Positions 4,154 to 7,070 of a stretch of DNA of 10,672 bases are shown piece by piece. The notes under the pieces are model-generated. The model did not search any database. It saw only the letters and a list, made by a program, of their open reading frames with translations, and was not told the DNA's origin. Numbering within the stretch: the stretch's first letter is position 1; each line of letters begins with the position of its first letter. The position numbers and the translations under genes are program-made. The DNA comes from Propionibacteriaceae bacterium (GTDB lineage: Bacteria > Actinomycetota > Actinomycetes > Propionibacteriales > Propionibacteriaceae): positions 1 through 10,672 of the forward strand of contig JAGQUI010000057.1 in the NCBI GenBank assembly GCA_020438595.1. The letters are read 5' to 3'.

Positions 4154-4636
4154 GTGAAGGGCCTCCCCGACCTCGGGCTCGATGACGAGCGCGCGGCACT
4201 GGCGAACGAGCTGTTCGCGCTGAACCTCAAGGTGCACGACCGGGCCATGGGGCTGGTCGGCCCGATGCCCACCCCGCCCGACCTGACCATGCAGCAGGTG
4301 CGGGTGCTCGGTCACGTCGCCGCGCAGCCCGGCATCACCGGCCACGAACTGGGCAGCCTGCTCGGGGTGAGCGCGCCGACCGCGAGCGGGCTGGTCGAGC
4401 GGCTGGTGGAGAAGGGGCTGGTCTCTCGGATGGACGACGCGGACGACCGGCGCGTCCGGCGGCTGCACCCGACCGAGGCCGGTCTGGACGTGATGCGCGA
4501 CATGGACTCGATGTTCGGCCGCGCCCTGGGCGTGGTGCTGCACAGGCTCACCGCCGACGACCTCGACCTGCTCTGCCGGAGCGCCCGCGCCATGCTGGCC
4601 GCCCTCGAGCGCGCGGAGGACCAGGCCCCGGCCTGA
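4154..4636 (+). CDS. MarR-family transcriptional regulator
   Basis: A 160-residue protein with the MarR fold: an N-terminal dimerisation helix (about 10-33), a winged helix-turn-helix at about 44-105 (LTMQQVRVLGHVAAQPGITG, then the recognition helix around SAPTASGLVERLVEKG), the wing with DDRRVRRLHPTEAG at about 97-110, and C-terminal dimerisation helices to residue 155. The length is typical for the family. GTG 4154 is the only start that keeps the first helix complete; its Shine-Dalgarno is weak. It is divergent from the RND pump with a palindrome between them, the usual arrangement of a local, ligand-relieved repressor controlling an exporter and itself. The inducer cannot be read from the sequence. 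A repeat unit carrying a small-RNA candidate begins 95 bp downstream on the same strand. Confidence 0.92.
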   Translation: MKGLPDLGLDDERAALANELFALNLKVHDRAMGLVGPMPTPPDLTMQQVRVLGHVAAQPGITGHELGSLLGVSAPTASGLVERLVEKGLVSRMDDADDRRVRRLHPTEAGLDVMRDMDSMFGRALGVVLHRLTADDLDLLCRSARAMLAALERAEDQAPA

Positions 4637-4730: not shown

Positions 4731-4855
4731 TGGGTGGACCGAGTGGGGAACCGTCCCCGACTCGGGCCGTTCGTCCGTCTGGTCACGGTTGTCACACGAC
4801 ACGCCGACGACACGCCGAGGGGCCATGAATTCCTTCAGGAATTTCCGCGAACCAC

Positions 4856-4884
4856 TTGCGGACTGCATTCCCAGGTACTAGAAA
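4856..4884 (+). promoter_or_regulatory. Promoter of the left small-RNA candidate
   Basis: TTGCGG (4856-4861) and TAGAAA (4879-4884) stand 17 bp apart. Both boxes and their flanks (GAACCACTTGCG and ACTAGAAATA) are conserved in the right copy, while the 16 bases between the conserved blocks match at only about 6 positions. Fixed boxes with a free spacer of constant length are what a sigma-70-type promoter shows. The expected start is near 4891. Confidence 0.65.
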
Positions 4885-4890
4885 TATCCA

Positions 4891-5074
4891 TACCAAATCA
4901 CTTCGGTGGTGCGGTGATCGGAAGCAGGAAGTCAGCTTTCCGGTGGGCTTGTCCCGCTGGGGCCCCGGTGATGCGTGGGTGTGGGTTGGCTGGTGGTTTC
5001 CGGTGTGACGAGGCCATCACGCCGAGTCTCCAGAGGGCCCCGGTGACTCATACTCCCCGGGGCCCTCGCCTTTC
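4891..5074 (+). ncRNA. Candidate structured small RNA, left copy
   Basis: The predicted transcript is about 184 bases, from the conserved promoter to the terminator. Readable elements are: a small hairpin CAC-TTCG-GTG (4899-4908); a long-range stem joining CGGAAGC (4919-4925) with GTTTCCG (about 4996-5002); an internal stem GTCAG with CTGGT; a hairpin GTGGG-CTTGT-CCCGC (about 4943-4957); a hairpin GGTGTGA/TCACGCC (5002-5023); and the terminator. In the right copy the same stems form with changed bases. No ORF of interest lies in it. The nearest downstream gene, osmC, faces it, so it is not a leader of a coding gene on this strand. I do not recognise the family. The start is inferred. Confidence 0.6.
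5033..5074 (+). terminator. Intrinsic terminator of the left small-RNA candidate
   Basis: GAGGGCCCCGG (5033-5043) pairs perfectly with CCGGGGCCCTC (5057-5067) around a 13-base loop, followed by GCCTTTC. The stem is strong but the U tract is short, as is common in high-GC actinobacteria. The loop is identical in the right copy. Confidence 0.7.
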
Positions 5075-5075
5075 T

Positions 5076-5114
5076 CAACCGGGGGGTTGCACGGCCGGGG
5101 CGAGTGATCTCGCC
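5076..5114 (-). terminator. Hairpins downstream of osmC
   Basis: Two short perfect hairpins follow the osmC stop codon on the minus strand: one with arms 5099-5104 and 5109-5114 (GGCGAG/CTCGCC, loop TGAT), and CAACC-GGGG-GGTTG at 5076-5089. They sit between convergent osmC and the left repeat unit and could end osmC transcripts. No U tract is present. Confidence 0.35.
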
Positions 5115-5155
5115 GCCCGCTCCGGCCCACCGGGCGGAGGCGCTCCGGACGCGGC

Positions 5156-5602
5156 TCAGGCGCTGCGCGAAGGCACCTCGGCCCCGTCGATCCGATAGCT
5201 CACCGGTGCGGACAGCTGCACCGTCCGCGACACCGTGCACAGTCGGTCCCTCGACTGGCTCACCGCCCGCTCCAGGATCGCGCGCGCCCGGTCGCCGGCC
5301 GGCCCCTCGGGGAACGAGACGTGGAAGTCCACGGCCACCTCGCCAAGGTGATGCCCCTTGTCATCGTCCAGTTTCGGCGCCTCGGCGGTGACCTCGAACC
5401 GGGTCGGCTCGGCTCGCCTGGTGGTGATCCAGTCGACGTCGATCGCGCTGCAGCCGGCCATCGCGACCAGGAGCAGCTCCACCGGGGTGAAGTCGGTGTT
5501 CTGGCCCTCACCGAAGCGGATCCGGCCGCCACGGGCGTTGGTGGCCTCGTAGGTCCGGGGGCCGGTGCGGACGGTACGGACGTTGCGCAGGTTCTCGTTC
5601 AC
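5156..5602 (-). CDS. OsmC-family protein
   Basis: A 148-residue protein of the OsmC/Ohr superfamily, usually cytosolic thiol peroxidases acting on organic hydroperoxides. Visible features are the N-terminal beta region, the helix TPVELLLVAMAGCSAIDV with the first cysteine at C51, and the second at C122 in DRLCTVSRTV. These match the two redox cysteines of the family. The length is typical. Start GTG 5602 has no convincing Shine-Dalgarno. GATACT (5615-5610) lies 7 bases before it, so a leaderless transcript is possible; read-through from the repeat unit upstream is the alternative. The gene is the only ORF between two inverted copies of a repeat unit: the right copy ends 24 bp before its start and the left copy faces its 3' end. 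Whether it is Ohr, OsmC or a YhfA-like subtype cannot be settled here. Confidence 0.9.
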   Translation of the reverse strand: MNENLRNVRTVRTGPRTYEATNARGGRIRFGEGQNTDFTPVELLLVAMAGCSAIDVDWITTRRAEPTRFEVTAEAPKLDDDKGHHLGEVAVDFHVSFPEGPAGDRARAILERAVSQSRDRLCTVSRTVQLSAPVSYRIDGAEVPSRSA

Positions 5603-5626
5603 GCCGTCCAGTATCGCTGCGCCCGG

Positions 5627-5668
5627 GAAAGGCGAGGACCCCGGGGAGTATGAGTCACCGGGGCCCTC
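5627..5668 (-). terminator. Intrinsic terminator of the right small-RNA candidate
   Basis: On the minus strand GAGGGCCCCGG (5668-5658) pairs with CCGGGGTCCTC (5644-5634). The single difference from the left copy changes a G-C pair to G-U, so the stem is kept. GCCTTTC follows. It ends 24 bp before the osmC start codon, so osmC would need read-through or its own promoter. Confidence 0.7.
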
Positions 5669-5811
5669 TGGAGACTCGGCGTGATGGCCTCGTCACACCG
5701 GAAGCCACCAGCCAGCCCGACCCCTCATCACCGAGGCCCCGGCCGGGGCGAACCCCGCCGACGAACTGACTTCCTGCTTCCGATCACCGGTCCACCGAGG
5801 TGTTCCGGCAA
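5627..5811 (-). ncRNA. Candidate structured small RNA, right copy
   Basis: The predicted transcript is about 185 bases on the minus strand, the counterpart of the left small-RNA candidate. The long-range stem is CGGAAGC with GCTTCCG, fully Watson-Crick here and with one G-U in the left copy. The GC-rich hairpin is GGGG-TTCG-CCCC where the left copy has GTGGG-CTTGT-CCCGC. The early hairpin loop is CTCG instead of TTCG. The 3' 65 bases before the last terminator arm are identical to the left copy. Because osmC follows on the same strand, this copy could also act as an attenuating leader. Start inferred, family unknown. Confidence 0.6.
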
Positions 5812-5817
5812 GACGTA

Positions 5818-5846
5818 TTTCTAGTCCTCCGCAAACAACTGCGCAA
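5818..5846 (-). promoter_or_regulatory. Promoter of the right small-RNA candidate
   Basis: On the minus strand TTGCGC (5846-5841) and TAGAAA (5823-5818) stand 17 bp apart, the same spacing as in the left copy, inside the same conserved flanks. The spacer sequence differs. Expected start near 5811. Confidence 0.65.
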
Positions 5847-6048
5847 GTGGTTCTCGAGAATTCCATCGAGGTATTTCGGGGCTCCCGGCGTGTCGTCGGC
5901 GTGTCGTGTGACAACCGTGGCCAGACGGGCTGGTCTGGCCCGGCGTGCTGGCGTGCTTCGCGGGCCACCTGAGGCCCCCGGACCGAGTTGGGGACGGTTC
6001 CTCACTCGGTCCACCCCCGGGGCGCCCCGGCCCTGGATCGCGCGCGGG

Positions 6049-7029
6049 TCAGCCGACCAGCCAGCGGGTGGTGGCGACGTACTCCTCCCCGGGACGCAAC
6101 ACGGTGCTCGGGAACTCCGGGTGGTTCGGGGAGTCCGGGTAGTGCTGGGTCTCCAGGGCGATCCCGGGACGGCGCACGTACGGCCGTCCGGAGGTGCCGA
6201 TCTGGGTGCCGTCGATGGTGAAGTGCTCCCCGCCGTAGACCTGCAGGGCGGGCTGGTCACTCTCGATCGCCAGGCTCAGGCCCGAGGTGCCGGTGAGCCG
6301 GCAGTGCTCGCGCATGCCCTCGCCGTCCACGACGAAGCTGTGGTCGAAGCCCTCCCTGCGGGTGATGCCCTCGGCGTCCGCGGCGATCCGGGCCTCACCG
6401 AAGCCGCGTCCGGAGCGGAAGTCGGCCGCCGAGCCGGTGACGTCGCGCACCTCGCCGGTGGGGATGCCGTCGGCCCGGTTGGGCGTGTAGGCGGACGCGT
6501 GCACCGTGAGCACGTGCGCGTCGGTGTTGCCCGACGACTCCCCGTCCAGGTTGAAGTACGGGTGGGTGGTCAGGTTCACCACGGTCGGGGCGTCCGTGGT
6601 GGCCCGGTAGGTCACCTGTGCCCCGCCGGGGACCAGCTCGTAGCGGGCGGAGACGGACAGCTCGCCCGGGTAGCCCTGGTCGCCGTCCGGACTGGTCAGG
6701 GCGAACTCCACCCAGTCGGGTCCCTGGCCGGCGATCGTCCAGGTACGGGCGTGGAACCCGTCCGTCCCGCCGTGCAGCTGGTTGGCGCCCTCGTTCGCGT
6801 CGAGCACGTACTCGACGCCGTCGAGGGTGAACCGGGCCCCGTCGATCCGGTTCGCGAACCGGCCCACGGTCATGCCCAGGTAGCGGCAGGTGGTCAGGTA
6901 GTCGGCCGGGTCCGCGGCACCCAGCACGATGTTGCGCCAGCTGCCGTCGGCGAGCCGGACCTCGAAGCGGCGAACGGTGGCCCCCAGGGGCATCAGCTCG
7001 AGCCGGACGGAGTCTCCGGCGAGCATCAC
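6049..7029 (-). CDS. galM: Aldose 1-epimerase (mutarotase)
   Basis: Interconverts alpha and beta anomers of hexoses such as glucose and galactose in the cytosol. In the numbering of the longest form (from GTG 7050, 333 residues) the motifs are GRFANRI (63-69), NQLHGG (90-95) with H93, THPYFNL (162-168) with the catalytic acid H163, DHSFVV (236-241), and GIALETQHYPDSPN (296-309) with the catalytic base E300. All are as expected for the GalM superfamily, and the length is normal. I prefer GTG 7029 because AGGA (7040-7037) lies 7 bases before it. GTG 7050 has no Shine-Dalgarno and overlaps a palindromic operator; ATG 7026 is a third option. The gene follows an MFS exporter on the same strand by 36-57 bp, probably as an operon, with an operator-like palindrome between the two. 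Confidence 0.92.
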   Translation of the reverse strand: MMLAGDSVRLELMPLGATVRRFEVRLADGSWRNIVLGAADPADYLTTCRYLGMTVGRFANRIDGARFTLDGVEYVLDANEGANQLHGGTDGFHARTWTIAGQGPDWVEFALTSPDGDQGYPGELSVSARYELVPGGAQVTYRATTDAPTVVNLTTHPYFNLDGESSGNTDAHVLTVHASAYTPNRADGIPTGEVRDVTGSAADFRSGRGFGEARIAADAEGITRREGFDHSFVVDGEGMREHCRLTGTSGLSLAIESDQPALQVYGGEHFTIDGTQIGTSGRPYVRRPGIALETQHYPDSPNHPEFPSTVLRPGEEYVATTRWLVG

Positions 7030-7048
7030 GAAGGTGTCCTCGTCGATC

Positions 7049-7070
7049 ACGGTGATAACGCTATCACCGT
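7049..7070. promoter_or_regulatory. Putative LacI-type operator upstream of galM
   Basis: Nine-base arms ACGGTGATA (7049-7057) and TATCACCGT (7062-7070) flank a 4-base centre with CG in the middle; 20 of 22 positions are symmetric. CG-centred palindromes of this size are typical LacI-family operators. It overlaps the upstream candidate start codon of galM and a possible -10 (TATCAC, 7057-7052), so it could control galM separately from the MFS gene. No LacI gene is in the window. Confidence 0.65.

What the first reader, a model, noticed from the sequence alone, without database searches (positions are those of the whole stretch)
4732..6016. Two inverted copies of an unrecognised small-RNA cassette bracketing osmC
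Units of 343 and 390 bp on opposite strands share an ordered set of conserved blocks (hairpin, tandem 11-mer, promoter boxes, structured core, terminator) separated by diverged sequence. Each starts just after a same-strand gene (marR on the left, galM on the right), carries its own promoter and terminator, and points at osmC. Block-wise conservation in an old duplication suggests selection on an RNA product. I match it to no RNA family I know.
Basis: partly seen in the sequence, partly recalled or inferred. Interest (0 to 1): 0.9.

Follow-up and report, generated by a model that had tools for sequence, protein, structure and literature searches.

The report
New actinobacterial small RNA, inverted pair
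Two facing copies of a folded RNA gene flank a bacterial gene; the same RNA family occurs in many actinobacteria, matches no family in the RNA library searched, and ends in one seven-letter loop, identical in nearly all copies found, whose partner is unknown.

Summary
Window 4775-5073(+) and 5628-5928(-) are two convergent copies of one element: tandem 11-mer, promoter-like boxes, ~185-nt RNA, 3' hairpin. The outer hairpin is a separate dispersed repeat. In same-genus relatives (Propionicimonas by record titles) the pair is convergent in 14 of 14 pairs on one contig, window included, with marR outside in 14 and galM in 11; enclosed genes vary (osmC 11, a LuxR-type gene 8), so osmC looks like cargo. 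Two genomes have one copy and no cargo at this site, probably the older state. The 97%-identical 3' block fits gene conversion. On a model-fitted alignment all 44 pairs show double compensatory changes, and a loop-loop (kissing) helix covaries. No Rfam 15 family matches. The 3' hairpin has a near-invariant heptaloop CUCAUAC; in a class sample such hairpins occur in 23 of 148 genomes, two permuted loops in 0 of 148. Best reading: a trans-acting structured RNA with its own promoter, the heptaloop being the contact site. Transcript, partner and targets are untested; an RNA-polymerase-binding role (like Ms1, CoRP) is the main rival.

The parts
4775..5073 (+). Left (marR-side) copy: operator region, promoter-like boxes and RNA
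   Evidence: nhmmer match to the iterated element profile, E 1e-80; alignment with relatives
5628..5928 (-). Right (galM-side) copy: operator region, promoter-like boxes and RNA
   Evidence: nhmmer E 2e-76
4797..4817 (+). Tandem 11-mer CGACACGCCGA/CGACACGCCG, likely regulator site
   Evidence: exact in 29 of 32 aligned copies; the other three have one change (two copies) or lack the upstream part (one); GACACGCC 0.58 vs 0.021 per 200 nt upstream of 120 CTCATAC hairpins vs random
5886..5906 (-). Tandem 11-mer of right copy
4855..4885 (+). Promoter-like pair: CTTGCG (4855-4860), 18 nt, TAGAAAT (4879-4885)
   Evidence: TAGAAAT exact in 27 of 32 copies, CTTGC in 29 of 32; not found by the sigma-70 consensus scan
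5817..5847 (-). Promoter-like pair of right copy: CTTGCG (5842-5847), TAGAAAT (5817-5823)
4888..5073 (+). RNA, about 185 nt; start inferred from the -10-like box
   Evidence: 190.7 bits to model R1, which was built with this copy; covariation
5628..5814 (-). RNA, about 187 nt, right copy
   Evidence: 176.4 bits to R1, built with this copy
4968..4973 (+). Hairpin loop GUGAUG, 5' half of the kissing helix
   Evidence: complementary to 5015-5020; helix 94.9% paired in 76 RNAs, 21 double-change cells vs 4.7 shuffled
5015..5020 (+). Hairpin loop CAUCAC, 3' half of the kissing helix
5726..5731 (-). GUGAUG loop of right copy
5681..5686 (-). CAUCAC loop of right copy
5033..5067 (+). 3' hairpin (probable terminator) with heptaloop CUCAUAC at 5047-5053
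   Evidence: loop in 76 of 76 rows of A8; stem helices 99.0 and 99.3% paired with double changes
5634..5668 (-). 3' hairpin with heptaloop CUCAUAC at 5648-5654
5156..5602 (-). osmC (PF02566), enclosed gene
   Evidence: Pfam E 3.9e-11; present in 11 of 14 pairs
4154..4636 (+). marR-family regulator, outer neighbour
   Evidence: PF12802 E 8e-16
6049..7050 (-). galM-like aldose 1-epimerase gene, outer neighbour
   Evidence: PF01263 E 5.4e-71; found outside in 11 of 14 pairs
4736..4768 (.). Dispersed palindromic repeat, not part of the RNA cassette
5980..6012 (.). Second copy of the dispersed palindromic repeat

Best explanation
Each copy is an independent gene for a structured, probably trans-acting noncoding RNA of about 185 nt. 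Shown here: a conserved promoter-like pair, a conserved upstream tandem site, a multi-hairpin fold with compensatory changes, a kissing helix between two hairpin loops, and a 3' hairpin with a near-invariant CUCAUAC heptaloop. Inferred: a regulator binding the tandem GACACGCC site controls transcription, the RNA ends at the 3' hairpin, and it works away from its locus, with the heptaloop as the contact for one shared partner (an RNA-binding protein, or a complementary RNA such as GUAUGAG around AUG starts). Inferred from the comparison of genomes: one copy between convergent marR and galM was duplicated in inverted orientation around inserted genes; the two copies then either diverged as paralogues or were homogenised by gene conversion, and recombination between them can flip the enclosed genes.
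For: RNA structure: RNAalifold on a MAFFT alignment of 31 copies, 44 pairs, 27 with double changes; 76-RNA alignment 90.3% paired, 858 double-change cells vs 281 shuffled; kissing helix 94.9% paired, 21 vs 4.7, with variants GGTGACG/CGTCACC, GGTGAAGG/CCTTCACC, GGTGACA/TGTCACC, GGTGGCG/CGCCACC. RNAalifold on unfitted alignments of two subfamilies puts both motifs in hairpin loops. Spread: 75 of 245 genomes of the order, 12 of 37 genera; 58 of 147 of the family. Heptaloop: 76 of 76, 71 of 71, 50 of 52; GGCCCN6CTCATACN6GGGCC gave 30 matches in 23 of 148 genomes, permuted loops 0 of 148 twice; 27 of the 30 have all six inner pairs. Promoter-like pair upstream of 120 of 163 distinct CTCATAC hairpins held, against 136 of 3000 random positions. 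Trans rather than cis: neighbours differ between groups.
Against: No transcript was seen; no expression data were available. The consensus scan finds no sigma-70 promoter and no U-rich terminator. A8 is fitted to the model structure, so its counts lean towards it; related sequences inflate shuffle tests; the number of pairs with double changes (4) was reached by 32 of 500 shuffles and a slide of -3 still pairs 81%. Single-sequence folds are only moderately below shuffles (z -2.2, -1.8). No target or protein partner was identified. The 163 hairpins come mostly from loci chosen for this family, so 120 of 163 is not an unbiased share; 43 have no promoter-like pair, and two (L234, L237) appear by eye to follow a coding gene directly, so the heptaloop is not exclusive to this RNA. 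The seed pattern and R1 contain the loop, so its invariance is partly a search effect. 10 of 30 same-genus genomes had no match to the element (several are incomplete).
Confidence: 0.6

Rival explanations
1. An abundant RNA-polymerase-binding decoy RNA, functionally like 6S, Ms1 or CoRP but of its own family.
For: Similar length; conserved promoter-like boxes; up to four matches per genome in some relatives; PMC11077062 (passages read) reports the separate CoRP RNA in Corynebacterium and expects unknown types where neither 6S nor Ms1 was found. A short-chain dehydrogenase gene lies next to the RNA in L051 and L066, and 'oxidoreductase' is one of the Ms1 synteny phrases.
Against: 5' and 3' ends do not pair into a closing stem with a central bulge; no HAD hydrolase among 18 neighbour proteins scanned in other genera or four in the window; Aeromicrobium, Nocardioides and several Intrasporangiaceae genera already have a predicted Ms1 in PMC9130861 (section 22 read).
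Confidence: 0.2
2. The CUCAUAC hairpin is an anticodon-loop mimic (CAU) that acts on ribosomes or AUG start codons.
For: Seven-nucleotide loop with six of seven letters equal to the initiator-type loop CUCAUAA (recalled), which was found as GGGCTCATAACCC in four of four same-genus genomes and lies in a tRNA-Met in L238; loop near-invariant.
Against: Noticed after the fact; closing pairs (A-T in 115 of 163) lack the three G-C pairs of initiator tRNA (recalled feature); no ribosome data.
Confidence: 0.1
3. A cis-acting leader or attenuator of the next gene (osmC in the window).
For: As called, osmC starts 25 nt after the right copy on the same strand; some other copies have a close co-directional gene.
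Against: The left copy faces osmC; osmC was not found in 3 of 14 pairs and is flipped in one; downstream genes differ between groups. Gene calls in the loci are my own rough ones.
Confidence: 0.05
4. An inverted-repeat mobile element or DNA-level recombination site without an RNA product.
For: Inverted pair, enclosed genes that vary, one inversion, signs of gene conversion.
Against: Compensatory changes in the helices including a kissing helix; copies at differing loci in other genera; no match in the one viral pattern scan and the one plasmid search made.
Confidence: 0.03

Closest known systems
Ms1 RNA (PMC9130861; abstract, sections 7 and 22 and passages read)
   Same: Structured RNA of actinobacteria, a few hundred nucleotides, predicted in several of the same genera
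   Different: Ms1 is tied to an HAD-IB hydrolase neighbour and is 6S-like; this RNA was found at other loci, without an end-closing stem, with kissing loops and the CUCAUAC hairpin
CoRP RNA of Corynebacterium (PMC11077062, abstract start and passages read)
   Same: Actinobacterial structured RNA missed by structure and synteny searches; near tRNA genes, as some Aeromicrobium copies are near tRNA-Leu
6S RNA (RF00013, number recalled)
   Same: Length near 185 nt, multi-copy in some bacteria (recalled)
   Different: No Rfam match; no single long rod with central bubble
Sibling sRNAs of other bacteria (Qrr, CsrB/C, RsmX/Y/Z; recalled)
   Same: Several related copies per genome, likely under a dedicated regulator, repeated use of one exposed loop
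   Different: No sequence or structural relation tested

Membership tests
Any Rfam 15 family | Match at the curated gathering score | tested here: not met
   No match on the RNA in the window and the loci given (one search found four tRNAs elsewhere in the loci); no match at E<=0.01 in 20 further loci; best in the window region sodF_sRNA, 21 bits vs 46 needed, opposite strand
Ms1 | Neighbouring HAD-IB hydrolase gene (with oxidoreductase-type partner) | tested here: not met
   No HAD domain in marR, osmC, galM, RND of the window or in 18 neighbour proteins of other genera; not every neighbour was scanned. A short-chain dehydrogenase (oxidoreductase-type) is adjacent in L051 and L066
Ms1 / 6S | 5' and 3' ends paired, long rod with central bulge | tested here: not met
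   Consensus folds show separate hairpins and a 3' terminal hairpin
Ms1 / 6S / CoRP | Binding to RNA polymerase | not testable with these tools
   needs immunoprecipitation
CoRP | Sequence homology to the Corynebacterium RNA | not tested
Intrinsic terminator | G+C-rich hairpin followed by a U-rich tract | tested here: inconclusive
   Hairpin present and conserved; tail TCGCCTTT fails the strict scan
cis-regulatory leader | Same downstream gene family on the same strand | tested here: not met
Structured noncoding RNA (generic) | Compensatory base-pair changes | tested here: met
Published candidate lists outside Rfam (e.g. NAR 2017 gkx699) | Same motif already described | not tested
   paper not held

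The most novel reading that the evidence does not exclude
The CUCAUAC hairpin is a class-wide 3' handle of actinobacteria: one still unknown protein (or the ribosome, through anticodon-loop mimicry) recognises this loop on a diverse set of RNAs, playing the part that Hfq or ProQ play elsewhere (their absence from actinobacteria is recalled, not tested), and the window's inverted pair encodes two members of an RNA family that carries it.
Probability: 0.3. Interest if true: 0.92.

Novelty: new variant of a known kind. Interest (0 to 1): 0.78.

Why it matters
A structured RNA shared by many genera of actinobacteria that is absent from Rfam 15 would be a sizeable gap in RNA annotation. Its 3' loop gives a ready bait for finding a partner in a phylum where, to my knowledge (recalled), no general small-RNA chaperone is known. 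The inverted pair also shows gene conversion and turnover of enclosed genes around an RNA gene in one genus.

Tried and rejected
Rejected: osmC-specific function (enclosed genes vary); mobile element (no match in one viral and one plasmid search); small protein (indels among copies are not in threes; judged by eye, no coding test was run); Ms1 by synteny. R1 class matches of roughly 25-32 bits in large genomes (Streptomyces- or Micromonospora-like by size only, a guess) cover 98-143 nt and were not used as evidence. Hymenobacter L076 (11.9 bits) is taken as chance. Literature: in the listings of eight searches I saw no paper that describes this RNA; the library lacks most subscription papers. 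I recall, without certainty, a motif name containing AACTCA from published lists; it could not be checked. TGTGGA sites (DnaA-box-like by recall) are enriched upstream of the hairpins (1.14 vs 0.059 per 200 nt), but rows mix near relatives and no regulator was identified.

Rows dropped or parts given: copies cut at contig ends (L044-L047) before the alignment; L048 (run of N) from A2; the copy at L043 8973 from the tree; one search examined 33 of the 51 loci (18 same-genus ones left out) plus L021 and L022; A8 drew on 63 chosen loci at E<=1e-7. One search listed 71 RNAs and prints only the longest exact complement; in a number of them (for example L042 4402, L049, L050, L164, L066, L083, L096, L171, L176) that is not the kissing pair, because another match is longer or the pair holds a G-U or a mismatch; one search counts 23 of 453 cells unpaired. 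By eye the diverged third copies L198 and L213 show no clear kissing pair.

Full report
What is there. The window holds two convergent copies of one element, 4775-5073(+) and 5628-5928(-), on either side of osmC. In order, each copy has a GTCAC-containing stretch, a tandem CGACACGCCGA/CGACACGCCG, a CTTGCG box, a TAGAAAT box 18 nt further on, a structured region, and a G+C-rich hairpin. The window's own genome is not held.

Relatives in the genus. A DNA search of 60 relatives found matches in 22 of 60 genomes, some only to the dispersed outer repeat; 10 of the 30 same-genus genomes had none. Twenty stretches from 17 genomes were taken. With tblastn, all 14 pairs on one contig (window and L031-L043) are convergent, with marR on one outer side in 14 of 14 and galM on the other in 11 of 14 (not found in L037, L039, L042). 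OsmC lies between the copies in 11 of 14, a large LuxR-type regulator (GerE domain) in 8 of 14, and two families without Pfam match in four and two of 14. L043 has two galM-side copies, one of them without the upstream part. OsmC and marR are on opposite strands in 10 of 11 and on the same strand in L033, as recombination between inverted copies would produce. G010 (L164) and G011 (L050) have a single RNA between marR and galM and no enclosed gene found. G006 has two copies on contigs where none of the eight test genes was found.

Gene conversion. In a tree of 31 copies, eight genomes keep marR-side and galM-side copies as separate groups (support 96/98 and 89/88), so the duplication seems older than their split. 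In the other pairs the copies resemble each other within the genome in part or whole. In the window, identity is 73% upstream, 75% in the 5' half and 94% in the 3' half; in G001 68, 75 and 98%. Over the last 91 nt the window's two copies differ at 3 sites and G001's at 1, while same-side comparisons between the two genomes differ at 2 and 4. This is a small sample, but it fits homogenisation of the 3' part. So the most striking block of the finding is not by itself proof of selection.

The RNA. On a MAFFT alignment of 31 copies RNAalifold predicts 44 pairs, 27 with changes on both sides. A covariance model (R1) gives matches that span the model at E<=1e-7 in 30 of 35 loci scanned; one of these (L053) is same-genus and two (L054, L099) are short forms of 104 and 81 nt. 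Named hosts from the pattern scan include Aeromicrobium, Phycicoccus, Humibacillus, Tetrasphaera, Nostocoides and Ornithinibacter with long forms, and Nocardioides and Flexivirga with short forms. In genome samples R1 matched 75 of 245 genomes of the order and 44 of 345 of the class (the samples overlap, and some matches are the 3' hairpin only); R2 matched 58 of 147 of the family and 5 of 396 of a phylum sample, G001 among them. In one search each of the 19 same-genus genomes with a match carries a diverged copy of about 200-219 nt elsewhere, also where the pair was not found (G002, G012, G013, G020, G021); two further same-genus genomes listed (G014, G017) had no match.

Structure test. On 76 RNAs (A8, fitted to the model, so leaning towards it) 90.3% of cells pair, all 44 pairs have double changes, 858 double-change cells against 281 in shuffles, and slid versions fall to 39-54% paired. 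A helix outside the model, GUGAUG with CAUCAC some 45 nt downstream, pairs in 94.9% of cells with 21 double-change cells against 4.7 (0 of 500 shuffles). Its number of pairs with double changes, 4, was reached by 32 of 500 shuffles, and a slide of -3 still pairs 81%, probably because the motif is nearly three-periodic. Variants such as GGTGACG/CGTCACC and GGTGAAGG/CCTTCACC keep the pairing. RNAalifold on unfitted alignments from Intrasporangiaceae-type loci (A5) and Aeromicrobium (A6) places both partners in hairpin loops. Single-sequence folding was only moderately below shuffles (z -2.2 and -1.8).

The 3' loop. CUCAUAC is present in 76 of 76 rows of A8, 71 of 71 of the wide set and 50 of 52 of A7. 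The seed pattern and R1 favour it, so a separate test was made: GGCCCN6CTCATACN6GGGCC gave 30 matches in 23 of 148 class genomes, against 0 of 148 for CATACTC and 0 of 148 for CTACATC, and 0 for the pattern read backwards. Of the 30, 27 have all six inner pairs (G-U allowed) and three have one mismatch. Of 163 distinct CTCATAC hairpins in fetched loci, 120 have a promoter-like pair within 420 nt upstream, against 136 of 3000 random positions; most of these loci were fetched because of the family. Many of the class hits have such a pair and then longer, different sequences before the hairpin, and two appear to follow a coding gene directly. The closing pair varies: A-T 115, G-C 23, T-A 10, C-G 7, other 8.

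What it most likely does. The loci differ between groups: marR-galM here, thrS with HIT, acetyltransferase, PPK2 or short-chain dehydrogenase genes in Intrasporangiaceae-type loci, DUF445 and tRNA-Leu in Aeromicrobium. That argues for a trans-acting RNA. The conserved upstream site argues for regulated transcription. The exposed loop is the best candidate for partner contact. The partner, the targets and the transcript itself remain unshown.

Known or new. No Rfam 15 family matches the RNA in six searches. No HAD hydrolase, the Ms1 marker neighbour, was seen among the neighbours scanned, though a short-chain dehydrogenase (an oxidoreductase, also an Ms1 phrase) is adjacent in two loci; the 6S/Ms1 end-closing stem is missing. 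CoRP RNA of Corynebacterium could not be compared. The listings of eight literature searches showed no description, but the library is partial and one obvious paper is not held. I therefore rate it a new variant of a known kind, a new RNA family, with unknown mechanism.

Noticed in passing
window 4736-4768 and 5980-6012: A 33-bp palindromic repeat flanks both RNA copies on the outside; similar units are scattered in several relatives, in one (G013) tandem at 34-bp spacing.
   Followed up: partly
L034, L036, L037, L039-L043: A large LuxR-type regulator gene (GerE domain) lies between the RNA copies in 8 of 14 pairs and could be the factor that binds the tandem 11-mer.
   Followed up: no
L220-L232, L111, L112, L130: TGTGGAC-like sites, resembling DnaA boxes (recalled consensus), lie upstream of the promoter-like pair in many unnamed actinobacterial loci.
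   Followed up: partly
L176, L198, L199, L212, L213: A third, diverged single copy of the RNA elsewhere in same-genus genomes, also where the pair was not found.
   Followed up: partly
L136, L141, L144: Small-genome actinobacteria (about 2 Mb) carry a relative of the RNA of roughly 260-270 nt.
   Followed up: no
L054, L059, L099, L214: Short forms with promoter-like pair, one or two hairpins and the CUCAUAC hairpin only.
   Followed up: no
L234, L237: A CUCAUAC hairpin that appears to follow a coding gene's stop codon directly, as an mRNA terminator would.
   Followed up: no
L055, L071, L079: The GACACGCC half-sites look arranged as an inverted repeat instead of a direct repeat.
   Followed up: no
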